Origin: Chloroflexota bacterium | Lineage (GTDB): Bacteria > Chloroflexota > Anaerolineae > JAAEKA01 | Assembly: GCA_034717495.1 (NCBI GenBank) | Contig: JAYELL010000101.1 | Location: 90,659 to 139,183, forward strand | Reading direction: 5' to 3' | Length of the DNA stretch: 48,525 nucleotides | Shown: positions 3,826-28,588 of the stretch, piece by piece | How positions within the stretch are numbered: the stretch's first letter is position 1 | Layout of the letters: every line of letters begins with the position of its first letter | The notes under the pieces: model-generated | What the model was told of the DNA's origin: nothing | What the model saw: only the letters and a program-made list of their open reading frames with translations | Databases searched by the model: none | Translations under genes and position numbers: made by a program

Positions 3826-5556
3826 ATGACAGAAAAGCCTTCGATTTACCCCGTTGAAGCTCGCAAGACCGCGCGTGTGCGCTTCGCAGACGGTCGTTTC
3901 TTTGAATCCGCGCCGGGCAGAACGCTCGAGGAATACGCCAGGGAGGCCTTTCCCGATCCAGAGGTGCCATTTGTAGCCGCCATTGCTGATGGCGAACTGG
4001 TGGAATTGACCTACCCGGTGGTTCGGGACACGGACGTATCATTGATCTTCATGGACAATGTCGACGGGATGCGAATCTACCGCCGGTCCCTGTCGATGCT
4101 CCTGGTGGCGGCTGTGAGTGAGTTGTTTCCGGGTACCCGCCTGTACATCGATCATTCCATGACTTTCGGGGGACTTTACTGCCACGTGGAAGGCAGACCA
4201 CCACTTACTTCTCTGGAGCTCCAGGTGCTTGAGGATCGTATGCGTGACATGGTTGCCCGGGATCTTCCGATCCGGCGGGAAGAGGTCCCGGTTGAGGATG
4301 CCATCGAGGAATTCCGTGCCCGCAATGACGAGGAAAAGGCCAGGCTGCTGGAACAAAGTGACAAGAAGACGGTGGCTATCTATCAGGTCGGTGATTATCG
4401 TAATCACCTTCATGGCTATATGGTTCCGAGCATGGGTTATTTGCGCTGGTTTGATTTAGTACCCTATCCGCCAGGTTTCGTCCTGCATTATCCGCGCCGG
4501 CAAGCCCCGACCGAACTTCAGACCTTCAGGGCTGTGCCGAGATTGGTACAGGTGTTTCAGGAGTATCGGGAGTGGGTCAATGTAATCGGTGTACGCAACG
4601 TGGCTGCACTCAACGCGTCGATCGAAGATGGCCGGATTCGTGAGGTGGCCCTGGTGGCTGAAGCCTTGCACGAGCAGCGCATTGCGGCAATCGCCCACCA
4701 GATTGCGCGACGGCGCAGCGAAGTAGGGTTGGTCTTGATCGCCGGGCCTTCATCTTCGGGAAAAACTACCTTTGCCCGGCGCCTGTCGGTGCAACTGTTG
4801 GCCAACGGAATGTTGCCAGTGGCTTTGGGCCTCGATAATTGGTTCATCGATCGCGACAGAACCCCGGTGGACGAATATGGTGAGCATGACTTTGAGGCGT
4901 TGGAAGCCATCAACCTGGCATTGTTCAACCAGCATTTGCGCCAGCTGGTAGCGGGCGAGACTGTAACTCTGCCGCGCTATAACTTTCATACAGGCAAGAG
5001 CGAGTCGGGTGAGACTTTGAGCGTCAAACCTGACCACGTTATCCTGGTTGAAGGAATCCATGGCCTGAATCCGCAATTGCTATCCGATGTGCCCCAGGAA
5101 CGAATGTTTCGTATCTACGTCTCGCCCCTTACCCAGCTCAATGTCGACCGGCACAACCGGGTGTCGACGACTGACACGAGAATCGTCCGGCGCATAGTGC
5201 GGGATGCTGCCAGGCGCGGCTATTCGGCAGCTGAAACCATTGCTCGTTGGCCAAGTGTTTGGCGGGGTGAACGGCAGCACATCTTTCCCTACCAGCAACA
5301 TGCAGATGCCATGTTCAATTCCGCTCTGGTGTACGAATTGGCTGTCTTGCGTCCCCTTGCCGAACCGTTGTTACTCTCTGTGGAGCCACGGACGCCGGAA
5401 CGGATTGAAGCTCAGCGTTTATTGAGTTTTCTGCGTTGGTTCAGGCCATGTCGACGGGACGTGGTGCCGGAGAACTCCATACTGCGAGAGTTCGTCGGCG
5501 GCTCGAACATGGAACAGTTCACCCCCTGGCGGCGTCAATCCCGTGAAGGGGAATGA
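3826..5556 (+). CDS. TGS / ThrRS-SAD-like / uridine kinase-like fusion protein
   Basis: A 576-residue cytosolic protein. Residues about 15-75 look like a TGS domain (RVRFADGRFFESAPGRTLEE). About 80-190 resembles the second additional (editing) domain of threonyl-tRNA synthetase, with the histidine-bearing stretch YIDHSMTFGGLYCHV. About 295-530 is a phosphoribulokinase/uridine kinase P-loop domain with Walker A GPSSSGKTT (K313), LDNWFIDRD and VEGIHGLNPQ. This fusion is a known family, usually called nucleoside or uridine kinase, but its physiological substrate is poorly defined. The length is normal for the family. It is probably monocistronic, as it has its own promoter and a repeat-rich gap follows. 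No strong ribosome-binding site was seen. Confidence 0.85.
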   Translation: MTEKPSIYPVEARKTARVRFADGRFFESAPGRTLEEYAREAFPDPEVPFVAAIADGELVELTYPVVRDTDVSLIFMDNVDGMRIYRRSLSMLLVAAVSELFPGTRLYIDHSMTFGGLYCHVEGRPPLTSLELQVLEDRMRDMVARDLPIRREEVPVEDAIEEFRARNDEEKARLLEQSDKKTVAIYQVGDYRNHLHGYMVPSMGYLRWFDLVPYPPGFVLHYPRRQAPTELQTFRAVPRLVQVFQEYREWVNVIGVRNVAALNASIEDGRIREVALVAEALHEQRIAAIAHQIARRRSEVGLVLIAGPSSSGKTTFARRLSVQLLANGMLPVALGLDNWFIDRDRTPVDEYGEHDFEALEAINLALFNQHLRQLVAGETVTLPRYNFHTGKSESGETLSVKPDHVILVEGIHGLNPQLLSDVPQERMFRIYVSPLTQLNVDRHNRVSTTDTRIVRRIVRDAARRGYSAAETIARWPSVWRGERQHIFPYQQHADAMFNSALVYELAVLRPLAEPLLLSVEPRTPERIEAQRLLSFLRWFRPCRRDVVPENSILREFVGGSNMEQFTPWRRQSREGE

Positions 5557-5575
5557 GGCAGATCAATCCAGGAAA

Positions 5576-5675
5576 GATCAGCGCGAATCTGCGCCGAAGG
5601 TCTGCGTAAACCGGCGGTGAAATCAGAAAAAAGACACAACCGCAGACCTGAATGAACCGCAGATGACGCTGATGA
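5576..5675. repeat. Nested inverted repeats in the 5557-5930 gap
   Basis: Outer arms GATCAGCGCGAATCTGCG (5576-5593) and CGCAGATGACGCTGATGA (5658-5675) pair imperfectly. Inner arms AGGTCTGCG (5598-5606) and CGCAGACCT (5641-5649) pair perfectly. It lies just after the kinase-like gene and could end its transcript, but there is no T-run. The rest of the gap holds the sortase promoter at 5710 and no convincing gene; a 72-codon open frame at 5688-5906 has no recognisable features. Confidence 0.55.
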
Positions 5676-5709
5676 ACGCCTGTTAGGGTGAGTCCAAATC
5701 GGGGCTTTC

Positions 5710-5738
5710 TTGCCAATTCCATGGCGTTCGGCTACAAT
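5710..5738 (+). promoter_or_regulatory. Candidate promoter for the sortase / exopolysaccharide block
   Basis: TTGCCA (5710-5715), an exact 17-base spacer and TACAAT (5733-5738). Predicted start is near 5745, so the sortase message would have a leader of about 185 bases. No other promoter this good was seen before the next genes. Confidence 0.5.
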
Positions 5739-5930
5739 GATTTCCCTGTCGCAAGCAATCTGCTTCCTTCACGGGTCCCCGGCTTGTTTCTTGATATATT
5801 GTCAGGTGATCCGGGTGATCTGATTGAAGAGAGCCCAGACATTCGGGGTGAGGCAGAGGTTGTCCAGCTGAATTGCAACCGATTTGTAGTGGCAAAAAGC
5901 CGCTGAAGTGCGCTGGAGGGCATAGAATCT

Positions 5931-6686
5931 GTGAGTGAAAAGAGTGCAATTGCAGGGCGCAGGATAAGGGATTCGTTCGCTGCGATCAGGGTGCCGGTGA
6001 TGGCCGCGTTCCTGCTGTTTTTTGCTGCGGGCTGTTTTTCGCGGCCTGCCGTGGTCCCAGATGCCACGCCAACCGTGGCGAGACCACCGGCGCAACTTCC
6101 GGCACCTGGCACGACACTGACAGCGACTCCTGAAACTGCGGCGACAGTACCTGCGCCGACCAGCACACCGAGCGGTTCTATCACGCTGCCAGATGATGCC
6201 CCTCCGCTCAGCGGCGCGCCCGATCGTGTAGTCATTCCTGCAATCGATCTCGATACGGCCATTGTCGACGTGGGTTGGACTGTCGTGGAGCGGGGCGATG
6301 AGCGTTTCACCGAGTGGGAGACCGCTGAAGACGCTGCAGCACGTCATATCAACAGCGCGAGGCCCGGGCAACAGGGCAATGTAGTATTGTCGGGCCATCA
6401 TAATACCAGGGGCGAGGTGTTCCGACGCATCAGCGATCTGGAAATCGAGCCCGGAGATTATATCTATCTCTATGATGACGAGGGCCAACGACACACCTAT
6501 CTGGTGGATGAAGTGACAGATCCGCCGCTTCTTGAGGTCGGTGCCGATTCCGATCAGCGGCTCGAAAATGCCCGCTATATTCTGCCAACCAACGATGCCC
6601 GGGTGACCCTGGTCACTTGCTGGCCTTATTGGACCAACACGCATCGGGTTGTCGTTGTCGGCAAGCTCGTTGCGCAAGAGAATTGA
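5931..6686 (+). CDS. Lipoprotein-type sortase (class D/E-like transpeptidase)
   Basis: A 251-residue sortase-family cysteine transpeptidase. After a short cytosolic segment, a hydrophobic stretch ends in a lipobox-like LLFFAAGC, so it may be a lipid-anchored lipoprotein rather than a plain type II membrane protein. A Thr/Pro-rich spacer (about 40-90) follows, then the sortase barrel. The catalytic triad reads as H156 (VVLSGHHNTRG), C230 (VTLVTC) and R239 (THRVVV). Sortases cut a C-terminal sorting signal and link the protein to a surface amine. No classical substrate with signal, membrane segment and basic tail is encoded here. The start is a GTG; GGAGGG lies about 13 bases upstream. It is first in the exopolysaccharide block. 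Confidence 0.88.
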   Translation: MSEKSAIAGRRIRDSFAAIRVPVMAAFLLFFAAGCFSRPAVVPDATPTVARPPAQLPAPGTTLTATPETAATVPAPTSTPSGSITLPDDAPPLSGAPDRVVIPAIDLDTAIVDVGWTVVERGDERFTEWETAEDAAARHINSARPGQQGNVVLSGHHNTRGEVFRRISDLEIEPGDYIYLYDDEGQRHTYLVDEVTDPPLLEVGADSDQRLENARYILPTNDARVTLVTCWPYWTNTHRVVVVGKLVAQEN

Positions 6687-6745
6687 TTAGAAGGCTCGGC
6701 GCATAGGATTAGTGGTGTAAGGTTACGCGGTCCGGAAGGATAAGT

Positions 6746-8455
6746 ATGGAACTTCGTCGCATTGGACAGATTCTCTGGAAATGGCTTTGGCTGATCATCC
6801 TGGGGGCGGTTTTGGCTGGTGGCACAGCCTATGTCATTAGCATGCGATCGACCCCGATCTACCGGGCATCGACACAGATACTGATCCAGCAGAATAGCAA
6901 TCCAGCAGCGCCTCAATGGACCGACGTTTTGACCTCTGAGCGTCTTGCTGCCAACTATGCGCAACTCCTGACCACAAGGCCGATCTTGGAGAAGGTTGCC
7001 GAAAGTGTTGGTTTGCCGGCGATAGATTCGCGGATCATTGTCGATCCTGTGCGTGAGACACAGCTCATTGCTCTCCATGTGGAGGACCCCAATCCAGCGC
7101 TGGCAACAGCGATTGCCAATGAGGTACCACAAGTCTTTATCGATGTGAACGATGCCCAGAAGGCCAGTCGATTCGATAGCTCACTTGAGGCTTTCGATGA
7201 GCAGATAAGCCGGGTCGAAAGGGATATCCAGACCCTTCAGGAGGAGTTGATTGCTTTCGACGTTCGGGAAAGCAATGGGGAAGAGCTCTCCTTCAACGAG
7301 ATGGCTCGTCGTATTTCTCTGGAAACTTCGCTTGCCCAGTACCAGGCGTCTCTCTCCGATATCTGGCGCCGCCGCGACGAGGTTAGTCGCCAGAGTGCTC
7401 TCAGCGGCGATACAGTGACTGTGGTAGAAAGTGCCATCCAACCGACCGTGCCGGTCAGGCCTCGTGTGCTGTTGAACACCGCTTTGGCCGCGGCTTTGGG
7501 TGCCTTGTTAATGACTGCCATGGCTTTTCTGATCGAATACCTGGACGACACCATCAAACTGCCGGTGGATGCCAGTCGCGTCACCGGATTGCCAGCACTG
7601 GGGTCTTTGGTTCGACTTCCCAACGGTGGCGAACGGCAATTGATAGCACACACCAATCCGAAATCTCCGTTCAGCGAAGCCTATCGCACATTGCGTACCA
7701 ATATCCAGTTTTCCAGTTTGGATAAACCGGTCGAAACCCTGATGGTAACCAGCGCCAGCCCGGGCGAGGGGAAAAGCACAACGATTGCAAACCTGGCGGT
7801 CGTGATTGCCCAGACGGGCAAACGTACCATTCTGGTAGATTCCGATCTGCGCCGTCCGGTATTGCATCAGGTATTTCGAGTGCCCAATGCTGTGGGTGTG
7901 ACAAGCGCCCTGCTACAGCCCGAGGGCAGCGACCTCTCGCCGTTCCTGCAGTCGACGGAGGTAGAAAACCTGCGGTTGATGACCAGCGGGCCTCAACCAC
8001 CGAATCCATCTGAGTTACTTGGCTCGCGTCGTATGACCGCGTTGGTTCAGGACCTGGCCGACCATGCCGATGTCCTGGTGTTTGACAGCCCGCCAACGTT
8101 GGCTGTAACCGACGCCGCGGTCCTGGCTCGATGCATGGATGGCGTTCTCCTGGTGGTGGAATCTGCCAAGACACGGGAAGGGGCTGTCAGGCTTGCAGCT
8201 CAGGAACTGGCCAAGGTTAACGCCAGCGTGTTGGGTGTTGTTGTCAACCGGATCTCTTCGCGGTTGGCAGGTTCACATTATTACTACTACGACTACTATG
8301 AGGAAAAGTCCGAGGGTGACGACTCCTCTTCTGGCGACGGTGACAGGCAGGGTGATCTTGACCAGGGTTGGTCATCTGAGTCGGGCAAGGCGCCAGCGGG
8401 CGGTTTCGTAACGAGCCGTCTTCGCCGCCCTGGCTCCTCAGTTCAAGATGTTTGA
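6746..8455 (+). CDS. Wzz-type chain-length regulator fused to BY-kinase
   Basis: A 569-residue polysaccharide co-polymerase with tyrosine autokinase. The Wzz domain is flanked by membrane helices at about 10-32 (LWLIILGAVLAGGTAYVIS) and 232-258 (LLNTALAAALGALLMTAMAF), with a coiled-coil-rich extracellular part between. The cytosolic kinase has Walker A SASPGEGKSTT (K343), Walker A' ILVDSDLRRP and Walker B VLVFDSPP. A tyrosine cluster SHYYYYDYYEEK (Y512-518) is the expected autophosphorylation site. A single-chain form is typical of many bacteria, whereas Firmicutes usually split it in two. The ribosome-binding site GGAAGGA is close to the ATG. It sets polymer length for the exopolysaccharide made by the neighbouring genes. 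Confidence 0.94.
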   Translation: MELRRIGQILWKWLWLIILGAVLAGGTAYVISMRSTPIYRASTQILIQQNSNPAAPQWTDVLTSERLAANYAQLLTTRPILEKVAESVGLPAIDSRIIVDPVRETQLIALHVEDPNPALATAIANEVPQVFIDVNDAQKASRFDSSLEAFDEQISRVERDIQTLQEELIAFDVRESNGEELSFNEMARRISLETSLAQYQASLSDIWRRRDEVSRQSALSGDTVTVVESAIQPTVPVRPRVLLNTALAAALGALLMTAMAFLIEYLDDTIKLPVDASRVTGLPALGSLVRLPNGGERQLIAHTNPKSPFSEAYRTLRTNIQFSSLDKPVETLMVTSASPGEGKSTTIANLAVVIAQTGKRTILVDSDLRRPVLHQVFRVPNAVGVTSALLQPEGSDLSPFLQSTEVENLRLMTSGPQPPNPSELLGSRRMTALVQDLADHADVLVFDSPPTLAVTDAAVLARCMDGVLLVVESAKTREGAVRLAAQELAKVNASVLGVVVNRISSRLAGSHYYYYDYYEEKSEGDDSSSGDGDRQGDLDQGWSSESGKAPAGGFVTSRLRRPGSSVQDV

Positions 8456-19997: not shown

Positions 19998-20507
19998 GTG
20001 ATCAGATCTACTGTGGTTGCGGGGGCATTCGCTGGCTTGCTGCTGCTGAGCCTGACCGGCATGGTAATGGCGTCCGGCAGCAATCTTTCCAGCATCGCAA
20101 GGGATGTCACTTATCAGCAAGAGACGCCTGGCCGGCCAATTGTCATTCGTTGGTCGACTGAGACCGAGGTCGACACGGCCGGATTCAACATCTACCGTTC
20201 GCAGAGTGAGCAGGGCCCCTGGGTTCAGATCAACGGGCGGTTGATTCCGGGTGCGCCCGATCCATTGCGTGGCGGTAGCTATGTCTTTACCGACACCGAG
20301 GTCATCGCTGGCAACACCTATTGGTATGAACTGGAAGAGATCGAACTGTCGGGACGGGCGACTCGTCTGGAGCGTACCCGCGCGCTGGCTGAATCGCAGA
20401 AAGGTGACCTGTTGGCGGGTCTACCCTGTGGAAGCAGTTTATTTGCAATGGTATCGCTAGGGATTATGGTAATAGGGGGGCGCAGGAAGATTCATGCCCG
20501 TGCCTGA
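19998..20507 (+). CDS. Secreted FN3-like protein with C-terminal membrane anchor
   Basis: A 169-residue protein. It starts with GTG and a signal peptide (AGAFAGLLLLSLTGMVMASG). A fibronectin type III-like domain spans about 38-130 (IVIRWSTETEVDTAGFNIYR, NTYWYELEEIELSG). The C-terminus is a short hydrophobic helix followed by a basic tail (LFAMVSLGIMVIGGRRK), preceded by LPCGSS. This signal-domain-helix-basic arrangement suggests a surface protein held or processed at its C-terminus. A sister protein with the same FN3 signature lies at 27467. The gene overlaps the start of the radical SAM gene by 14 bases. Function unknown. Confidence 0.75.
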   Translation: MIRSTVVAGAFAGLLLLSLTGMVMASGSNLSSIARDVTYQQETPGRPIVIRWSTETEVDTAGFNIYRSQSEQGPWVQINGRLIPGAPDPLRGGSYVFTDTEVIAGNTYWYELEEIELSGRATRLERTRALAESQKGDLLAGLPCGSSLFAMVSLGIMVIGGRRKIHARA

Positions 20508-22173
20508 TGTAATGCTGATCAGTCCGCCGGACTACAACACTCGGGAGTTTCGTGGCGCTCAACCCCTGGGTATCGCTTACCTGGCCTCGACACTACGAAC
20601 GCAGGGAAACGTGTCTTGCCGGCTGTTGGACGCGAATGTTGATGGTCCAACACCAATCGACCAGGTAACGGCAGAGGTTATAGCTTTCGTGGAGGAGGTG
20701 CGTTCGACCGGGGGACATCCGGTGGTCGGTATTTCCACCGTTTCCCAGGTGATCAAGACGGTCGTGGTGTTGGCCGACCGGATCAAGGCGGCTTTTCCTG
20801 ACACGTTGATCATACTGGGCGGCTATCACCCCACCTTTGCCCACCGCGAGATACTTAGAGATTTCCCATCGGTGGATATCTGTGTGCGCGGGGAGGGAGA
20901 GCAGACACTCCTTGAGATCATGTGCCATTGGCAGGAGGTCTGGCAGCAAAACCGGGCAGAAAATGATCTGAGCCATATCAGGTGGGACCATATTGCGGGC
21001 GTTTCATGGCGAGACGGGGAGAAAATCGTTGCCAATAGCAGCCGTCCCAATGCCAGGGACCTGGACCTGGTCCCCTTTCCAGCACGCGATCTTCTTCCCG
21101 GGTTGGCATCCTATCCTGTGTACAATGACACAGTATCGGGAACGGTGCGCCTGCGAGTCTCCCTGATGTCCAGCCGGGGTTGCCCATTTAGCTGCAGCTT
21201 CTGCTCGATCATCACCTTTTATGGAGATGGGGGTGGAAAGCCCTGGCGCGGCCGCAGCGTGGAGAACGTCGTGGCGGAGATGATCGAGGTGGCAGATACC
21301 CTTGGCGCCGGGCATTTCGAGTTTCAAGACGATAATTTTTTTGTGCGGCCTGAGCGGGCACAGGCGATCGTGGAAGGCTACGCTGCCACAGGGCGGGACT
21401 TCTCTTTTGCCTTTCTAACCAGGGCCGACCAGATTGTCAGAGGAGAGAGTTACTTTCCGGCCCTCCGGGATGCTGGTTTGCGCTATGTTAGCGTGGGTAT
21501 CGAAAGTGGCAGCGAGGCATCGTTGAAACGGATGGTCAAAGAAACTTCAGTGGAACTCAATCGCAAGGCGCTAAAAATACTTCACGACAACGATGTAGCT
21601 GCTCAGGTCGAGTTCATCATGTTTGAACCTGGCAGCGCGCTGGGTGACCTGCAGGATAATCTACAGTTCCTGGAGGAGCAAGGGCTTTTTGGGTACTTTC
21701 CGCCATTGATTTTTGGTGGTCTACTCCTGTTTCCCGGTACTCCGATTCGCCAAAAAATTGCCAGAGAACGGGGGACCACTGGCAGCATTCACAGCAACCT
21801 TCCATACAGCTTTCAAGATGGACGAGTGACCCAGGTCTTCGATCTGCTGAGGGCGTTTGAAATGTCTATGGGTCCGCAATGGTTTGATGTTTCTTTTGCG
21901 TTGCTGGACGGGATCCCCACCATGGAGATCGAGTTGAGCGCAAACGGCGAATCTCAAAGCGACGCCGAGAGGCTACGCGCTCTGGCCGAGATGAAACTGG
22001 AGTTTTTTGCGTTGACTCGGATTCCCTACAATCTGCTGAGGCGGGGATTGGCTCAGGTAGCGAATGAGGGATCGATTTCGCAGCGTGAGTTGCTGGACGG
22101 GTCTTGGAGAGACCAGCAGGAAATCATGGAGCGGGTTCAGCAACTCCAGGCGTTTTTGCCAGAAGTGAACTGA
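20494..22173 (+). CDS. B12-binding radical SAM enzyme
   Basis: A 559-residue cytosolic enzyme. The N-terminal part (about 1-150) is a cobalamin-binding-type Rossmann domain (DVMLISPPDYNTREF, HPVVGISTVSQVIKTVVVLA, ILGGYHPTFAHREIL, VRGEGEQTLLEIM). The radical SAM core has the [4Fe-4S] cysteines C230, C234 and C237 in RGCPFSCSFC, and FEFQDDNFFV further on. The family includes B12-dependent methylases and cyclases of lipids, pigments and peptides; the substrate cannot be read from sequence. AGGAAG lies 5 bases before the ATG. It ends inside the opposite-strand kinase-like gene (50-base tail-to-tail overlap). It may belong to the envelope block or to the RiPP locus next door. Confidence 0.87.
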   Translation: MPVPDVMLISPPDYNTREFRGAQPLGIAYLASTLRTQGNVSCRLLDANVDGPTPIDQVTAEVIAFVEEVRSTGGHPVVGISTVSQVIKTVVVLADRIKAAFPDTLIILGGYHPTFAHREILRDFPSVDICVRGEGEQTLLEIMCHWQEVWQQNRAENDLSHIRWDHIAGVSWRDGEKIVANSSRPNARDLDLVPFPARDLLPGLASYPVYNDTVSGTVRLRVSLMSSRGCPFSCSFCSIITFYGDGGGKPWRGRSVENVVAEMIEVADTLGAGHFEFQDDNFFVRPERAQAIVEGYAATGRDFSFAFLTRADQIVRGESYFPALRDAGLRYVSVGIESGSEASLKRMVKETSVELNRKALKILHDNDVAAQVEFIMFEPGSALGDLQDNLQFLEEQGLFGYFPPLIFGGLLLFPGTPIRQKIARERGTTGSIHSNLPYSFQDGRVTQVFDLLRAFEMSMGPQWFDVSFALLDGIPTMEIELSANGESQSDAERLRALAEMKLEFFALTRIPYNLLRRGLAQVANEGSISQRELLDGSWRDQQEIMERVQQLQAFLPEVN

Positions 22174-23257
22174 GAATCCCGGGCAACCGGTGGCGGTCTC
22201 TGCCCAGGCGCAATCGAAAACTGGGCAGGGTCTCCAGCATGTCGACCAGGAAGGCCAGTTGTTCGGAAACCTGGGCAGGATCGTGGAGATCAAGGCTGTA
22301 GGGGAGTAATTCGCTCAGAAGAGTCATCTTGTTCGCCGGCTCCAGCGTTGTTTCCGATCCATCGATGACCTCGGGAACGAGGATGATGGCAACTTCCCCT
22401 TGTAAAGCGATTCTTTGCGGGTATGCTTCGTTCAAAAAAACCAGATGTTTCCCTACAGCGTTGGGAGGATCGGAAACGTGGGGTCGGAGCCGGGGAAACC
22501 AGGCCAGGGTTTGATCGGTGACGTTCAGGGTATTCAACAGAGAAACGACCGTCAATGCACGATCCTGCGATCGAAGCAAGATTGTCGTGTCGTCGCCCAG
22601 GAAATCGAAGCCTTGCTGAACGCAGGAGAGCATCGCAGTTGTTTTGCCTGCCCCCGATTTGCCGGCAATCAGGATGGCCTTGTTGTTCAATGCGATGGCT
22701 GAGGCGTGCACCAACTGGAGTCCGTACCGGCGCAGGTGCTGATAAAGTGTGATGAAAATCGCCTGTTTGTAATGGTCGGGGAGCCAGTTCCGGGGATCCC
22801 GTACAAATCCGAGGGTACGGGACTTTGAGAAGTTGCTGGCCGTGAACACCTGGTTGCCATGGAGGGTGAATAGAAAGGGCCCTTCGCCGTACTCAGCGGT
22901 TTGTTGTTCAACCGACCGTTGCTGTGGGGGCCAGGGGAGCCTGGGGAAAGCCATCGAGGTCGCGGCCACGTCGAGAAAATCAAGGGTGAAATCGGGTGCC
23001 ACCCCTGGCGCTGGTTCTTCGAGATGGACGAGTGGGCGGTTGAAGCGCTCGTCCATCCGCTTGCTGCTCGATCTTATGCGCGTCGCGCAGGGGCCGACCT
23101 GGATCAAGCGCTGTTGTGAAAGGGGAATCGACTCGAAAGTGGCTTCCAGGTGTTGAAAGAACTGGGCCGGGGTTACGCCTGACATGTTGTCGGTGAAAAC
23201 GCTTAATCGTTGGTAACGCAAAAAAGGGAAGCCAAAAACAACTTCCCTTTTAGCCAT
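22124..23257 (-). CDS. HPr-kinase-like P-loop protein of the RiPP locus
   Basis: A 377-residue protein. The C-terminal half has an HprK/PEP-carboxykinase-type P-loop, AGKSGAGKTT (K205), preceded by QLVHASAIALNNKAILI and followed by FDFLGDDTTILLR, whose acidic pair fits the nucleotide/metal site. The N-terminal 170 residues are family-specific and of unknown function. Such kinases occur with PqqD and a precursor peptide in lasso clusters of the paeninodin type, where one phosphorylates the precursor. A similar role here is inference. It is last in the minus-strand set, 83 bases after the precursor gene. Its 3' end overlaps the radical SAM gene on the other strand. Confidence 0.82.
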   Translation of the reverse strand: MAKREVVFGFPFLRYQRLSVFTDNMSGVTPAQFFQHLEATFESIPLSQQRLIQVGPCATRIRSSSKRMDERFNRPLVHLEEPAPGVAPDFTLDFLDVAATSMAFPRLPWPPQQRSVEQQTAEYGEGPFLFTLHGNQVFTASNFSKSRTLGFVRDPRNWLPDHYKQAIFITLYQHLRRYGLQLVHASAIALNNKAILIAGKSGAGKTTAMLSCVQQGFDFLGDDTTILLRSQDRALTVVSLLNTLNVTDQTLAWFPRLRPHVSDPPNAVGKHLVFLNEAYPQRIALQGEVAIILVPEVIDGSETTLEPANKMTLLSELLPYSLDLHDPAQVSEQLAFLVDMLETLPSFRLRLGRDRHRLPGILSSLLAKTPGVAEPAP

Positions 23258-23340
23258 ACAACTCTGCTGAAGGCAGGGCCAGCAGCCAGCGCTAATACCT
23301 GTCTTGCAAGCGACGGATGGTACTTTGTAACGAGGTGAAT

Positions 23341-23466
23341 CTACTGACCAGGCTCAAGCCAATTGCCGGTAGGCGTGACTGTACCCAACGTCACCTTCTG
23401 AAGCCGCTGATGCTTGGTCAGTTTCGGGGTTTTGTACGTCTTCTTGACTGGAACATTTTTATTCAC
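23341..23466 (-). CDS. Putative RiPP precursor with a lasso-type leader (41 aa)
   Basis: A short gene with a GTG start at 23466 and a near-perfect ribosome-binding site GGAGGT (23478-23473) six bases upstream. It encodes 41 residues. The segment YKTPKLTKHQRLQKVTLG fits the lasso leader consensus Y-x2-P-x-L ... T-x. If the core begins at the glycine (G28), then Y, P, L and T fall at -17, -14, -12 and -2, the classical spacing recognised by PqqD-type proteins. The remaining core would be GTVTPTGNWLEPGQ. A classical lasso ring needs Asp or Glu at core position 7, 8 or 9; here the only acid is E11, so the product is not obviously a lasso. It lies between the PqqD-like and kinase-like genes on the same strand. 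Confidence 0.75.
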   Translation of the reverse strand: MNKNVPVKKTYKTPKLTKHQRLQKVTLGTVTPTGNWLEPGQ

Positions 23467-23510
23467 GATAAGACCTCCGTGGGTTGTCTTGCGCCTCAGG
23501 CGCTGCAAGA

Positions 23511-23542
23511 GTAGGCGTGCAATGCGCAGGCGAGCGGCCTAC
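23511..23542. repeat. Hairpin between the PqqD-like and precursor genes
   Basis: GTAGGC (23511-23516) pairs with GCCTAC (23537-23542) around a GC-rich loop that can pair further. A second small palindrome, GCGCCTCAGGCGC, lies at 23491-23503. There is no T-run, so these are more likely RNA processing or stability structures that could raise precursor expression relative to its neighbours. Confidence 0.35.
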
Positions 23543-23568
23543 CCAAAATCATCTACACAGTTGAAATT

Positions 23569-23640
23569 CTAACTCCACCAACGCGAGTCGTATTGCTTGC
23601 TAGGGCCGTGCTGAAGGTGAGCGTGGGCATCAGAACTCAT
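23569..23640 (-). CDS. Possible 23-residue peptide coupled to the PqqD-like gene
   Basis: An ATG at 23640 overlaps the TGA of the PqqD-like gene (ATGA) and opens a frame of 23 codons ending at TAG 23569. The peptide begins MSSDAHAHLQHG and ends SRWWS. The ATGA overlap is the normal arrangement for a coupled downstream gene, so this may be the surviving start of a truncated gene, a second small peptide, or chance. No family resemblance was recognised. Confidence 0.2.
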   Translation of the reverse strand: MSSDAHAHLQHGPSKQYDSRWWS

Positions 23641-23924
23641 TCCACAATGGTCACCAGACCCTCATCTACCAGATCGCCTACCAGTTCCAATACGTCCTTT
23701 TGTGCGATCATGGGCTCTACCTCATAGTTGTCGGCAATCATAGCAGCCAAATCGCCAACGCTTTTTGAACCATCAAGGCTTGCCCATATCTCGGTTGCAA
23801 CGGCGTTGAGGCTGAAGAATTCTCCACTCTTTTGGTCGATGAGCAATGTTTCGCCGTCAACGATTCGATCGATGACATACGTTGCATCTTTGGCAACTTG
23901 TGATTCAAGGGATAACTGAGGCAT
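23637..23924 (-). CDS. PqqD-family RiPP recognition protein
   Basis: A 95-residue protein of the PqqD family, a small winged-helix domain that binds RiPP leader peptides (the RRE fold). Typical features are TYVIDRIVDGETLLIDQKSG, FFSLNAVATEIWASLDGS, SVGDLAAMIADNY and a final DLVDEGLVTI. It likely binds the leader of the precursor encoded just downstream and presents it to a modifying enzyme. The frame is open to a GTG at 23942, but ATG 23924 fits the fold. The start has no strong ribosome-binding site. It is first in the minus-strand set driven by the promoter at 23972-24001. Confidence 0.85.
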   Translation of the reverse strand: MPQLSLESQVAKDATYVIDRIVDGETLLIDQKSGEFFSLNAVATEIWASLDGSKSVGDLAAMIADNYEVEPMIAQKDVLELVGDLVDEGLVTIVE

Positions 23925-23971
23925 AACAATGCAGGACGCCACTGGAACTAGTGTTCAGCGAACACGGTTGA

Positions 23972-24001
23972 ATTATAGCATAGGCTTTTGGCATTTGTCA
24001 A
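23972..24001 (-). promoter_or_regulatory. Near-consensus promoter of the RiPP locus
   Basis: On the minus strand, TTGACA (24001-23996), an 18-base spacer and TATAAT (23977-23972): both hexamers are perfect. Predicted start is near 23965, about 40 bases before the PqqD-like ATG. It is the best promoter in the window and suggests strong constitutive transcription unless a regulator blocks it. The rest of the gap up to 24288 has no convincing gene on either strand. Confidence 0.8.
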
Positions 24002-24288: not shown

Positions 24289-27200
24289 ATGTCAAAGGTA
24301 TTCAGTCGCTTCTGTTTGATTGCCGTTTTACTGGTCACCTTCGCCGGGGGCTTCAACAGGTATTCCCTACCTCTCGCCCTGGCCGAGTCTGACGGTCCGC
24401 AATTGCTGCGTACGGAGTCGTCTGGTCTTGTTTTTGATCTCTCCGTGCCATTACCCGTCGTTGAAGAGGTGTCGATTGAAGGCAATCAGTTTCATCGTCT
24501 CGAACTACCAGAATACGGTGCCTATGGCGAAATCGGACAAGCTGAATTACTGCAGCGGGGACTCCTGGTTGGAATTCCGGTCGGTGCAGAGGTCACGGTT
24601 CGTATCCTGGAGACCGAAGTAGAAGAGTTTCCAGAGCCGCTCCACATTGCTCCCGTGTTGAAAAGAGAGATCAACTATGACCCTGAGACCGGCAAGCCTG
24701 ATCTGGTTCCGGGAGTTCTCGAACGGTACTCCCTGGACGAGGGATTCTACACTACCGATGAATTTGCCCCTGCAGATATTGTTGTTGTGGATGAAATCGG
24801 CTTCATTCGCCAGCAGCGGTTTGTCAGGATCGTTCTTCGGCCCTTGCAATATAACCCGGCCACGGGCCAGTTGAGGGTCCACCGCTATCTGCGTGTGGAA
24901 GTAACATTTTCTGGCCAGGAAGCTGGCTGGCTGGCTGGCGGGGAGATCCAGGGGAATGATCCCTTTGATCCTATCCTTCGCAGCCAGCTTCTCAATTTCG
25001 AACAGGCCAGACAATGGCGTGCGCCCCATCGACCAGACCTGCGCGAAGTGGCGCGCAGCAACATTGGCTATCCCGGCGACATGGCCGGCCCCTGGTTCAA
25101 GACCTCGCTAAGACACACCGGCTTGTACAAGGTCACGCTGCAGGAGCTCCAGGATGCCTCTCTGGCCCCGTTGGCAACGGCTGATCCAGCGCTTCTTCAG
25201 GTGTGGCACAATGGAGAGGAACTGGCGGCTACCTTTCACGGCGACGCCGACGCCAGTTTCGACGAGGGCGAAGCGTTGATCTTCTATACCGATGTGCCAC
25301 GCTCCCTGTACAGCGAAACAGACGTCTTCTGGCTGACCGTCGGGAATCAGGCAAGGCGAATGTCGAGTATCGACGCGACGCCGTCTGGCCTGCCGCCGGA
25401 AAGCAGCGTTCCCGAACGTATTCAACTGGAAGAGGACTTTATTTTCCGCCATGACCTGCCAGATTATTCTGCACCGGAGCCAGACTATCCTCGCTGGTAT
25501 TGGGCCGAAATCCATAACTTGTTTAACCCGAACCTGGAAATTTCAGCAGTGCTGAATGACGCAGTAACCAATGGTTACAATGCCACGTTGAGGGTGCGTC
25601 TGATGGGGTGGACCAAAATCCCCGACGTAAATCCAGACCATCACGTGACCGTTTCGGTCAACGGCCACCAGGTCGGAGATCTGTTGTGGGACGGACAGAA
25701 GGAGATTATCGAGCAGGTCCAGTTCCCAGCCTCCCATCTGATTGCCGGGCTGAACACGATCCAGTTTAACGCGCCGGGCGATCTCCCGGGGGTATTCCTG
25801 GATCACTCCTATCTCGATCGGGTGGAACTGGGATATCGCCAATACACCAGGGCTCGAAACGATCGATTATTGTTCGGGTCCGAAAGCTATGGGGCGCTAG
25901 AGTTCGAGATTCAGGGGTTCACCCAACCGGGCGCATTTGTGTTTGACGTGACAGATTCACTGTCGCCGCTTCGATTGACCGGTGTCCAGACCGGAGGAAC
26001 GCATTCGGCAACAGAGGCCGGTCCAACGATCGAAGGACAAACCGACCTGTCCGAAAAGCTGTTTTTGCCGGCCTTCGGCGCGGGCGGCGAAGCAACGTCG
26101 GGCAATATCAGCGTACGGTTTCAACGTTCGTTGAGTGGTGAACACCGCTTTGCAGTGGCTTCGCTCGATGGCATAAACCGCGTTCCGGCCATCGTGCGCG
26201 ACAGGGGTTCTGACCTGCGCAATGTAGCCAATCAGGCCGATTATCTGTTGATCACCCACGATGATTTCGCCGGCGCAGCCGGTTTGCTGCGGGATCACCG
26301 GGCAGGCCAGGGACTTACAACGCTGTTGATCGACGTCCAGGACATTTACGACGAATATTCCGGTGGCCGCCTCGACCCAGGCGCCATCCGCGACTTCGTC
26401 GACTACGCCTATCACAACTGGCAAATGCCGCAACCGACCTACATATTGCTGCTGGGTGGGGGTCATTTTGACTATCGCATGACCACCGGGTCGGCGGGAT
26501 ATCCCAATTTCATTCCCCCCTATTTCGCCTGCGTCGACCCTTGGGTCTGTGAGGTTGCCGTCGACAACGAGTTTGCCGCCGTCAATGGTGCCGATCGTAT
26601 GCCCGACATGGCGATCGGCCGTCTTCCCGCACATGATCTGACCGAGGCCATGGTGATGGTCAACAAGATCATCAGCTATGAAACGGCCCCGCCGCCCGGC
26701 GCGTGGCAACAGACGATCACCTTTGTGGCGGACGACAAGGATAATGCCGGTGATTTCGAAGCCATGTCTGAAGCGGTCATTGCCCAGGTGCCCCAGTCCT
26801 ATGCCATCGATCGAATCTACTTCGATCCAATCCCCGATGACGACGATGGCGAACCTTTCCGCTATCGCACCCAGCCCGAGGCAACCCAGGCCATTCTAGA
26901 CGCAATCAATGAAGGGCGCATGATGGTGAACTGGGCAGGCCACTCGGGCACAACCGGTTGGGCCCATGAACGGCTGTTGAGGGCCAACCCGGCCACTCGC
27001 AACGACATTCTGGAGATGCATAACGGCGCCAGGCTTCCAGTGTTTTTGGATATGGCCTGTCTGAGCGGCAACTTCGCCGATATCTACTATCCAAGTGTTG
27101 AAGCCAGTCTTCTGGGGTGGGACCAGGGAGGGTCGGTAGGAGGATGGGCCGCCACCGGGTTTGGCGTGGCAACGGGACATGATTTGCTGCATCACGGGTT

Positions 27201-27354
27201 TTTCGATGCCCTGTTTCAGCAGGATGTTTCCCAGTTTGGACTGGCAGCGATTGCCGGCAAGGTTCATCTTCAAGCGCAGGGAAGAAGCCTGGACCTGCTT
27301 GATACCTTCGGCTTGCTCGGCGATCCGGCTTTGCAGATTATCACGAATCATTGA
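24289..27354 (+). CDS. Secreted gingipain-type (C25) cysteine peptidase
   Basis: A 1021-residue secreted protein. It has a signal peptide (FCLIAVLLVTFAGGF), a long beta-rich N-terminal region (about 30-640) that may act as prodomain or binding part, and a peptidase C25 domain (about 650-1015). Conserved elements are YLLITHDDFAGAAGLL, RDFVDYAYHNWQ, YILLLGGGHFDYR and MAIGRLPA. Catalytic candidates are H885 in NWAGHSGTTGW and C924 in LDMACLSGNF, the usual His/Cys pair. The C-terminal LLGDPALQI ends the domain; no Ig-like or type IX sorting domain follows. GGGAG lies upstream of the ATG. It is paired with a second C25 gene at 28668. Substrates unknown. Confidence 0.88.
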   Translation: MSKVFSRFCLIAVLLVTFAGGFNRYSLPLALAESDGPQLLRTESSGLVFDLSVPLPVVEEVSIEGNQFHRLELPEYGAYGEIGQAELLQRGLLVGIPVGAEVTVRILETEVEEFPEPLHIAPVLKREINYDPETGKPDLVPGVLERYSLDEGFYTTDEFAPADIVVVDEIGFIRQQRFVRIVLRPLQYNPATGQLRVHRYLRVEVTFSGQEAGWLAGGEIQGNDPFDPILRSQLLNFEQARQWRAPHRPDLREVARSNIGYPGDMAGPWFKTSLRHTGLYKVTLQELQDASLAPLATADPALLQVWHNGEELAATFHGDADASFDEGEALIFYTDVPRSLYSETDVFWLTVGNQARRMSSIDATPSGLPPESSVPERIQLEEDFIFRHDLPDYSAPEPDYPRWYWAEIHNLFNPNLEISAVLNDAVTNGYNATLRVRLMGWTKIPDVNPDHHVTVSVNGHQVGDLLWDGQKEIIEQVQFPASHLIAGLNTIQFNAPGDLPGVFLDHSYLDRVELGYRQYTRARNDRLLFGSESYGALEFEIQGFTQPGAFVFDVTDSLSPLRLTGVQTGGTHSATEAGPTIEGQTDLSEKLFLPAFGAGGEATSGNISVRFQRSLSGEHRFAVASLDGINRVPAIVRDRGSDLRNVANQADYLLITHDDFAGAAGLLRDHRAGQGLTTLLIDVQDIYDEYSGGRLDPGAIRDFVDYAYHNWQMPQPTYILLLGGGHFDYRMTTGSAGYPNFIPPYFACVDPWVCEVAVDNEFAAVNGADRMPDMAIGRLPAHDLTEAMVMVNKIISYETAPPPGAWQQTITFVADDKDNAGDFEAMSEAVIAQVPQSYAIDRIYFDPIPDDDDGEPFRYRTQPEATQAILDAINEGRMMVNWAGHSGTTGWAHERLLRANPATRNDILEMHNGARLPVFLDMACLSGNFADIYYPSVEASLLGWDQGGSVGGWAATGFGVATGHDLLHHGFFDALFQQDVSQFGLAAIAGKVHLQAQGRSLDLLDTFGLLGDPALQIITNH

Positions 27355-27355
27355 T

Positions 27356-27384
27356 TTGACAGGCCCAAACCCCTATGCTACCAT
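27356..27384 (+). promoter_or_regulatory. Candidate promoter for the FN3 / Pro-Thr protein
   Basis: A perfect TTGACA (27356-27361) starts two bases after the upstream stop codon, then a 17-base spacer and TACCAT (27379-27384). Predicted start is near 27391, giving a leader of about 75 bases that ends in a strong AGGAGG. Confidence 0.5.
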
Positions 27385-27466
27385 CGCCAACTGGTTCGGG
27401 GCTCTCTCAACGACTGATCAGACACCAGTTAAATTTTTTGCCCATTTGCCGACAGGAGGAGAAAAG

Positions 27467-28588
27467 TTGCGCTCAAAACGTCATTCATGGCAGTACATCA
27501 TTGGGCTGTTCGCTCTTGTACTTCTTGTTCTGGGGTTGACAGGTCCAGATGCCTTTTCGGAGGTCGATTTTACTTATTTCAACTTGGAGCAAGGCAATGC
27601 CGGGAACGAAGTTCGAGTCTTGTGGGGCACTGAGACCGAGAGAGATGTAGCAGCTATGCAGGTGCTTCGGCATACCTCCACCGATATTGACGTGGATCTG
27701 GACTGGCAAATCTACGCCGTGCATTTGGAACAGCCTCGGGGCAGTGTCACCAGCGGTGCTGACTATGAATGGATTGACACCGACGTAACACCGGGGGAAA
27801 CATATTTCTACTGGATCCTTGAGATTCGCACTATTGGAGTGCCGGGTGATTACATAGGCCCGGCCCGTTTCCCTGAAACCGCGGGACCAACCGAAACACC
27901 CACGCCCACTCCGACCGATGCACTGCCTGGCAATACGCCAGAGTCAACAGCAACCCACACGCCGACAGCAACTCATACTCCTACGGAAACGTCAGTACCG
28001 CCGACCAATACGCCAACGTCAGTGCAAGTAACCGATACGCCGGTACCGTCGGGCGGAAACCAGCAGCAACAGCCGACCGATACGCCCTTTGTGCCGACAA
28101 ACACGCCGGTCGCAGCCACCGATACGCCGGTGGCCCAGCCTACAAACGCGCCAGTAGGAGAGCCCACCGACACGGCCGTGCCGCCAACCGCCGACGCGGG
28201 CGGCAATGAGCCGGCAGAACTGCCAAGCCCGACCCCTGTACCCCTTGTGGAAAAACCCACGGAGACACCTTTGGTGATCGCGCCCAGGGCGGCCCCCGAT
28301 CAACCTGCGTCCTCTTCCGACTCGAATGAAAGTGGGCAACCGGAAGCGTTAGTTGCAGAAGGCGCTGAGGCGGCAGTTGCCGATACGCCGACGCCCCAGG
28401 TGCTTGCCGCGGCGTCACAGCAAGAGCAGACAGCCCGGGAAGCCCGCCCCACCGCAACGCCGCGTCCTGATAGCAGCGAGCAAGAATCGGGCGATGTGTC
28501 GAGCTTACTGTTGGTGGTCGGTGGTGGAAGTCTCTGCGGCGCCCTGTTGCTGGGACTGCTGGCCCTGTTTGTCTGGTTCAAACGCTAA
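27467..28588 (+). CDS. Surface protein: FN3-like domain, Pro/Thr stalk, C-terminal anchor
   Basis: A 373-residue protein. The start is a TTG at 27467, chosen because AGGAGG (27454-27459) lies seven bases upstream and a signal peptide follows at once (YIIGLFALVLLVLGLTG). An FN3-like domain (about 25-135; VRVLWGTETERDVAAMQVLR, GETYFYWILEI) precedes a stalk of about 180 residues rich in Thr, Pro and later Ala/Glu, with many TDTPV-type units. The C-terminus is a hydrophobic helix ending in a short basic tail (GALLLGLLALFVWFKR). It is related to the smaller protein at 19998. It lies between two C25 peptidase genes and could be their substrate or scaffold; that is inference. Confidence 0.8.
   Translation: MRSKRHSWQYIIGLFALVLLVLGLTGPDAFSEVDFTYFNLEQGNAGNEVRVLWGTETERDVAAMQVLRHTSTDIDVDLDWQIYAVHLEQPRGSVTSGADYEWIDTDVTPGETYFYWILEIRTIGVPGDYIGPARFPETAGPTETPTPTPTDALPGNTPESTATHTPTATHTPTETSVPPTNTPTSVQVTDTPVPSGGNQQQQPTDTPFVPTNTPVAATDTPVAQPTNAPVGEPTDTAVPPTADAGGNEPAELPSPTPVPLVEKPTETPLVIAPRAAPDQPASSSDSNESGQPEALVAEGAEAAVADTPTPQVLAAASQQEQTAREARPTATPRPDSSEQESGDVSSLLLVVGGGSLCGALLLGLLALFVWFKR

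What the first reader, a model, noticed from the sequence alone, without database searches (positions are those of the whole stretch)
22124..24001. Unannotated RiPP locus: near-consensus promoter, PqqD-like protein, lasso-type precursor, HprK-like kinase
Seen: on one strand, TTGACA-18-TATAAT, a PqqD-family gene, a 41-codon gene with GGAGGT at ideal spacing, and an HprK-type P-loop gene. The precursor segment YKTPKLTKHQRLQKVTLG puts Y, P, L and T at -17, -14, -12 and -2 relative to a glycine, the lasso leader spacing. Known: PqqD-type RREs bind such leaders, and HprK-like kinases modify lasso peptides in paeninodin-type clusters. Inferred: this is a genuine peptide natural-product locus. It lacks any cyclase (asparagine-synthetase-like) or transglutaminase-like leader peptidase in the window, so it is either split, decayed or a new minimal class.
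Basis: partly seen in the sequence, partly recalled or inferred. Interest (0 to 1): 0.9.

Follow-up and report, generated by a model that had tools for sequence, protein, structure and literature searches.

The report
Cyclase-free lasso-type peptide cassette
A small operon, conserved in a few Chloroflexota bacteria, makes a tiny peptide whose front half looks like a lasso-peptide leader, yet it sits with a kinase and a B12-dependent radical enzyme instead of the ring-closing enzyme, so it probably makes a new kind of modified peptide.

Summary
Promoter, PqqD-like gene, 41-codon precursor and HprK-like gene recur, in order, in five other Chloroflexota genomes from two families. A perfect TTGACA-18-TATAAT precedes PqqD in all six. 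The leader carries the exact lasso spacing (Y-17, P-14, L-12, T-2), and the PqqD's nearest solved relatives are lasso RREs.

Two things change the interpretation. First, the core is not a lasso core: no member has Asp/Glu at positions 7-9 (all have Asn8), residue 1 is Ala in the most distant member, and the genome has no lasso cyclase. Second, the cassette is larger: a B12-binding radical-SAM gene converges on the kinase, with orthologues only in the cassette-bearing genomes among 11 tested. A lasso-B2-type leader peptidase is encoded elsewhere in the genome.

Best reading: a RiPP cassette on a lasso leader/RRE/B2 chassis in which the kinase (probably at invariant Thr2) and the radical-SAM enzyme modify the core, with no macrolactam ring. 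No product has been shown.

The parts
23972..24001 (-). Promoter TTGACA-18-TATAAT with extended -10 (TGCTATAAT)
   Evidence: 12/12 consensus; the same perfect promoter with an 18-bp spacer and TGC before the -10 in all six genomes, 74-92 bases before PqqD
23637..23924 (-). PqqD-like RRE (B1-type leader-binding protein)
   Evidence: PF05402 E 2.7e-17; best NCBIfam matches are lasso PqqD models, below cut-off; nearest solved structures TfuB1 and TbiB1; orthologues in 5 other genomes
23491..23503 (-). Small GCGC(C/T/A)NNN(G/A/T)GCGC hairpin before the precursor
   Evidence: Present in 5 of 6, with the fifth pair C-G, T-A or A-T
23473..23478 (-). Shine-Dalgarno GGAGGT of the precursor
   Evidence: Conserved in 5 of 6; AAGGAGGA in the sixth
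23341..23466 (-). Precursor peptide, 41 codons, GTG start: VNKNVPVKKTYKTPKLTKHQRLQKVTL-GTVTPTGNWLEPGQ
   Evidence: Conserved in 5 other genomes; pN 0.11-0.14 against pS 0.45-0.76 versus relatives
23344..23385 (-). Core region GTVTPTGNWLEPGQ (Thr2 and Asn8 invariant in all six members)
23222..23251 (-). Strong RNA hairpin between precursor and kinase (probable attenuator, processing or stability element)
   Evidence: z -3.4 here and -3.6 to -6.1 in the five relatives, with unrelated stem sequence in the most distant one
22124..23257 (-). HprK-like kinase (start may be 23185)
   Evidence: Model pLDDT 91 with PEPCK (Z 15.8) and HprK/P (Z 14.2) folds; catalytic His, P-loop GKSGAGKT and DD conserved; 46-48% identical orthologues in 4 genomes, a broken reading frame in the fifth
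20494..22173 (+). B12-binding radical-SAM enzyme, convergent with the kinase (tails overlap by 50 bases)
   Evidence: PF02310 and PF04055; 54-66% orthologues in all six cassette genomes and absent from five others tested; next to the kinase in five, on a separate contig in G108
24289..27354 (+). Secreted C25 (gingipain-type) peptidase, divergent neighbour; possible but unproven part
   Evidence: PF01364 E 3e-84; adjacent in 5 of 6 cassettes, elsewhere in the genome in G128

Best explanation
This is a RiPP cassette that keeps the lasso recognition chassis but not the lasso cyclase. One strong promoter drives PqqD, precursor and kinase; a hairpin after the precursor probably keeps precursor mRNA in excess of kinase mRNA. 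The PqqD-like RRE binds the YxxPxL leader and presents the precursor to the HprK-like kinase, which phosphorylates a core hydroxyl close to the leader, most likely invariant Thr2. The B12/radical-SAM enzyme makes a second change on the core, most likely a C-methylation or related radical chemistry. The leader is then cut after T(-2)-L(-1) by the B2-type peptidase encoded elsewhere in the genome, or outside the cell by the neighbouring C25 peptidase. No lasso macrolactam is formed. Shown here by sequence: the genes, their conservation, the leader motif, the predicted fold of the kinase, the linkage of the radical-SAM gene, absence of a cyclase. Inferred: leader binding, both modifications and their sites, the identity of the leader peptidase.
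For: Same gene order in six genomes of two families. Precursor more conserved than its neighbours, with purifying selection. Perfect promoter and SD conserved. Hairpin conserved by structure, not sequence. PqqD nearest to lasso RREs. Kinase with HprK/PEPCK fold and intact catalytic residues. Radical-SAM orthologues present only in the cassette genomes among 11 tested. In the distant genome G030 (CP059258.1) the cassette has kept its radical-SAM and C25 neighbours although the DUF4012 and FN-like neighbours lie about 510 kb away. B2 homologue over the lasso_biosyn_B2 cut-off, in all five cassette genomes of this family and not in the sixth genome of the family, which lacks the cassette; across the class 23 of 26 genomes with this B2 also have a kinase of this type (4.4 expected), some adjacent. 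Published precedent: BsfK with its RRE BsfB1 phosphorylates core Ser3 of a lasso precursor only when the leader is present (PMC10368454).
Against: No product or enzymatic activity is known. Characterised HprK-type peptide kinases act within lasso clusters, often on a C-terminal Ser, which is absent here. The B2 gene is not linked to this cassette and the genome has a second PqqD/HprK locus that it might serve instead; it was not found in G030. No dedicated exporter lies directly beside the genes. In G030 the kinase frame is broken as sequenced (a MAG with many Ns). The relatives' records are mostly metagenome assemblies, and four of the six genomes are one genus.
Confidence: 0.62

Rival explanations
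1. A true lasso-peptide locus split across the genome: a cyclase and peptidase act in trans and close a ring as usual.
For: Canonical lasso leader, B1-like RRE, HprK-like kinase, and a B2 homologue elsewhere.
Against: No Asp/Glu at 7-9 in any of six cores and Ala1 in one; the only Asn_synthase match in this 95.6%-complete genome is a 34-residue stretch of a 611-aa ORF that reads as GMP synthase; G128 and G030 also have only weak fragments.
Confidence: 0.07
2. A ring is formed at invariant Asn8, the position that is Asp8 or Glu8 in lasso peptides, by an enzyme other than a lasso cyclase (for example transamidation by the transglutaminase-like B2 homologue, or a radical-SAM bond).
For: Asn at exactly position 8 in all six cores although the stretch after it varies from 6 to 8 residues; a transglutaminase-fold protein co-occurs within the family.
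Against: Only about three independent lineages; Asn is not a usual transglutaminase donor; no precedent known to me; B2 not found in G030.
Confidence: 0.1
3. The unit is regulatory or a self-contained sensor: the kinase phosphorylates the short peptide (or the peptide inhibits the adjacent secreted C25 peptidase) and no natural product is made.
For: No exporter directly beside the genes; C25 adjacent in 5 of 6; core short and slowly evolving, unlike many antibiotic cores; very strong conserved promoter.
Against: Lasso-type leader and RRE, B12/radical-SAM enzyme and B2 homologue all point to peptide maturation.
Confidence: 0.16
4. Chance ORF beside an ordinary PqqD/HprK pair.
For: Such pairs without an evident precursor are common in the class.
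Against: Conserved protein with low pN/pS, conserved SD and motif in six genomes.
Confidence: 0.01

Closest known systems
HprK-containing lasso clusters (paeninodin Pade; BsfA/B1/B2/K; pseudomycoidin)
   Same: YxxPxL leader at -17 to -12, T(-2) (Ile in Bsf), PqqD-type B1, HprK-like kinase; a B2 homologue exists in the genome
   Different: No cyclase C, no acid at core 7-9, no C-terminal Ser; B12/radical-SAM enzyme beside the kinase; B2 unlinked
SynChlorMet cassette (NCBIfam TIGR04248 ScmD, TIGR04249 ScmC)
   Same: PqqD-like plus HprK-like proteins (detected at 38-42 and 20 bits); from memory also a small peptide and radical-SAM enzymes
   Different: Scores far below the family cut-offs (100 and 125 bits); its radical-SAM enzymes, as recalled, are not of the B12-binding type
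B12/radical-SAM + HprK + PqqD + B2 + AsnB clusters of other Anaerolineae (L108, L109, L110, L111)
   Same: A B12/radical-SAM gene beside an HprK-like gene (convergent where checked), PqqD, and the same B2 subfamily
   Different: In L111 the radical-SAM is only 25% and the kinase 33% identical; AsnB-type gene present; no precursor found

Membership tests
Lasso peptides | Leader with YxxPxL at -17 to -12 and T(-2) | tested here: met
   Exact in the window and conserved in all six; lasso_cyano model 19 bits, below its cut-off of 33
Lasso peptides | Core with residue 1 amine and Asp/Glu at 7-9 for the macrolactam | tested here: not met
   No D/E at 7-9 in any of six; Asn8 in all
Lasso peptides | Asparagine-synthetase-like cyclase | tested here: not met
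   None in the window; only a 34-residue match in the genome
Lasso peptides | B1 (RRE) protein | tested here: met
   PF05402; TfuB1 and TbiB1 nearest solved relatives; lasso-specific NCBIfam models hit below cut-off
Lasso peptides | B2 transglutaminase-like leader peptidase | tested here: inconclusive
   A homologue over the NF033537 cut-off exists on contig C84, unlinked; whether it acts on this precursor is unknown
HPr kinase/phosphorylase-like peptide kinases | HprK/PEPCK fold with P-loop, catalytic His and Asp pair | tested here: met
HPr kinase/phosphorylase-like peptide kinases | Leader-dependent phosphorylation of a precursor | not testable with these tools
   Needs biochemistry; precedent BsfK (PMC10368454)
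RiPPs in general | Conserved precursor gene beside an RRE and modifying enzymes | tested here: met
RiPPs in general | A modified peptide product | not testable with these tools
   No mass spectrometry available
SynChlorMet cassette | ScmC and ScmD family membership | tested here: not met
   19.8 against 125 bits and 39.6 against 100 bits

The most novel reading that the evidence does not exclude
A RiPP class of its own: a lasso-type leader, RRE and B2 chassis coupled to an HprK-like kinase and a B12/radical-SAM enzyme in place of the lasso cyclase, giving a phosphorylated, radical-modified peptide whose invariant Asn8 occupies the lasso ring-closing position.
Probability: 0.45. Interest if true: 0.78.

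Novelty: new variant of a known kind. Interest (0 to 1): 0.63.

Why it matters
It would show that lasso leaders and their RRE/B2 machinery are a general presentation chassis that can be rewired to kinases and B12/radical-SAM enzymes without a lasso ring, so leader-based lasso mining should not assume a lasso product. It also gives a compact, testable set of genes for an uncharacterised B12/radical-SAM peptide modification in Chloroflexota, a phylum with few studied RiPPs. I found no description of this gene combination in the searched literature, but that library lacks most subscription journals.

Tried and rejected
Lasso cyclase in trans: searched the own genome and ten others for Asn_synthase; the own-genome hit lies in a 611-aa ORF that reads as GMP synthase, rejected. 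Relatives of the precursor beyond this group: a profile search of 396 class genomes and a scan of 84,980 species gave only the same members; six weak hits at E 0.003-0.007 share a few residues only and were not counted. Deriving function from more distant PqqD/HprK pairs: most sit in glycosyltransferase clusters without an evident precursor, so they were not used. Anti-phage defence: only a weak generic radical-SAM match in PADLOC. The radical-SAM model is poor (pLDDT 66); its matches to OxsB, TokK, CysS and MgmA say only 'cobalamin-dependent radical SAM'. C25 as a fixed part: weakened by G128, where the orthologue is on another contig, and by 7-9 C25 matches in each genome of the family. My first pN/pS run was misframed by one codon in the window sequence and was redone.
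Full report
What is in the window. The window is part of a 5.0-Mb, 120-contig genome (95.6% complete; G000:C101:90659-139183). On the minus strand, in order: a perfect sigma-70 promoter (24001..23972), a PqqD-like gene (start best placed at 23924), a 41-codon ORF with a GTG start (23466..23341) and a near-perfect Shine-Dalgarno sequence, and an HprK-like gene ending at 22124. The plus-strand gene 20494-22173, a B12-binding radical-SAM enzyme, converges on the kinase and overlaps its tail by 50 bases. A secreted C25 peptidase diverges from PqqD at 24289.

Is it more than chance? Yes. An HMM of the precursor finds real relatives in exactly five other genomes: four of the same family and one (G030, CP059258.1) from another family of the class. 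All have PqqD and kinase sequence beside the precursor in the same order. Precursor identity to the window copy is 68-71% within the family, whereas kinase identity is 46-48% and PqqD 43-49%. pN is 0.11-0.14 against pS 0.45-0.76 over the aligned part of the precursor. The promoter is 12/12 with an 18-bp spacer in all six, though most of the flanking sequence is not conserved. The SD is conserved. A strong hairpin lies between precursor and kinase in all six, with an unrelated stem sequence in G030.

Leader and RRE. The positions Y-17, P-14, L-12 and T-2 are exact and invariant in all six. NCBIfam's lasso precursor models hit the leader, below cut-off. The PqqD's closest solved relatives are TfuB1 and TbiB1, lasso RREs. 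So the recognition half of a lasso system is present by sequence; binding itself is inferred.

The core is not a lasso core. The cores are GTVTPTGNWLEPGQ, GTVSNGPNWLLPGN, GTVSSGPNWLLPGN, GTVSNGANWLMPGN, GTVSRPGNGDWLLPGN and ATTPPPLNFPNALPGQ. None has Asp or Glu at 7-9; residue 1 is Ala in one; Thr2 and Asn8 are invariant. The own genome has no asparagine-synthetase cyclase, only a 34-residue match in a 611-aa ORF that reads as GMP synthase. G128 and G030 show only weak fragments too, though both are incomplete (72% and 77%). A missing cyclase is therefore unlikely to be an assembly gap in every case (inference).

The extra parts. Orthologues of the radical-SAM gene (54-66%) occur in all six cassette genomes and in none of the five others tested, one of which (G020) is of the same family. 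The gene lies next to the kinase in five; in G108 the kinase contig ends first and the radical-SAM gene is on another contig. In G030 the DUF4012 and FN-like neighbours of the window lie about 510 kb away, yet radical-SAM, precursor, PqqD and a C25 peptidase have stayed together, so linkage is not mere background synteny. The kinase frame in G030 is broken as sequenced, in a MAG with many Ns. In G128 the C25 orthologue is on another contig, so C25 is a weaker candidate. A lasso-B2-type peptidase (NF033537, 40.4 bits against a cut-off of 33) lies at G000:C84:59300-59815; its orthologues are in all five cassette genomes of the family (a fragment in G056) and absent from G020, but none was found in G030. 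In 298 class genomes 23 of 26 with this B2 also carry a kinase of this type, 4.4 expected; that count is not corrected for relatedness. In G243, G206, G246 and G166 the two are close neighbours, and there too a different B12/radical-SAM gene lies near the kinase.

Kinase. The AlphaFold model (pLDDT 91) matches PEPCK (Z 15.8, 298 residues, rmsd 5.1) over its whole length and HprK/P (Z 14.2, 137 residues, rmsd 2.9) over the C-terminal domain. His, P-loop and the Asp pair are conserved across 11 relatives, with one Asp replaced in one of them. Published work shows that an HprK-like kinase, BsfK, phosphorylates core Ser3 of a lasso precursor, helped by its RRE, and does not act on the core alone (PMC10368454); paeninodin-type kinases act on a C-terminal Ser (PMC8498205). 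Here the C-terminus is Asn or Gln, and Thr2 is the only core hydroxyl conserved in all six, so Thr2 is the predicted site (inference).

Verdict. The locus is real, preceded by what should be a strong promoter, and under selection. It fails two defining tests of lasso peptides (acid at 7-9; cyclase), so it should not be filed as one, though it probably works like one up to leader recognition. The best filing is a new variant of RiPP cassette on a lasso-type chassis. The chemistry is inferred, and six genomes from about three independent lineages is a small base.

Noticed in passing
L049 (G000:C25:87000-94314), 5134-7315: A second HprK-like + PqqD pair in the same genome, followed by a different small ORF (MSKQPINQSDSSNRKPWEEPRIILERSLEAEAQGPAPGAPDASGPFGPFGPLTS) with a good SD, then a secreted protein whose N-terminus resembles a C25 propeptide by eye (no Pfam match).
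   Followed up: partly
L108, L109, L110, L111 (G243, G206, G246, G166): Clusters of B12/radical-SAM, HprK-like, PqqD (seen in L111), lasso-B2-like and full-length asparagine synthetase genes, without any recognisable precursor nearby.
   Followed up: partly
L039, L041, L042, L044, L046, L053: PqqD (about 150 aa) + HprK-like pairs embedded in runs of small glycosyltransferase-like genes; no precursor seen.
   Followed up: partly
L088 (G084:C827): What looks like an ordinary phosphorylated-lasso cluster (B2, HprK-like, Asn_synthase) in one of the cassette-bearing genomes, separate from the cassette.
   Followed up: no
window 19998-20507 and 27161-28588: Secreted-looking proteins sharing a 'WSTETE.D.A' / 'WGTETERDVA' type motif, ending in a hydrophobic stretch followed by Arg/Lys; no Pfam match; neighbours of the C25 peptidases.
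   Followed up: no
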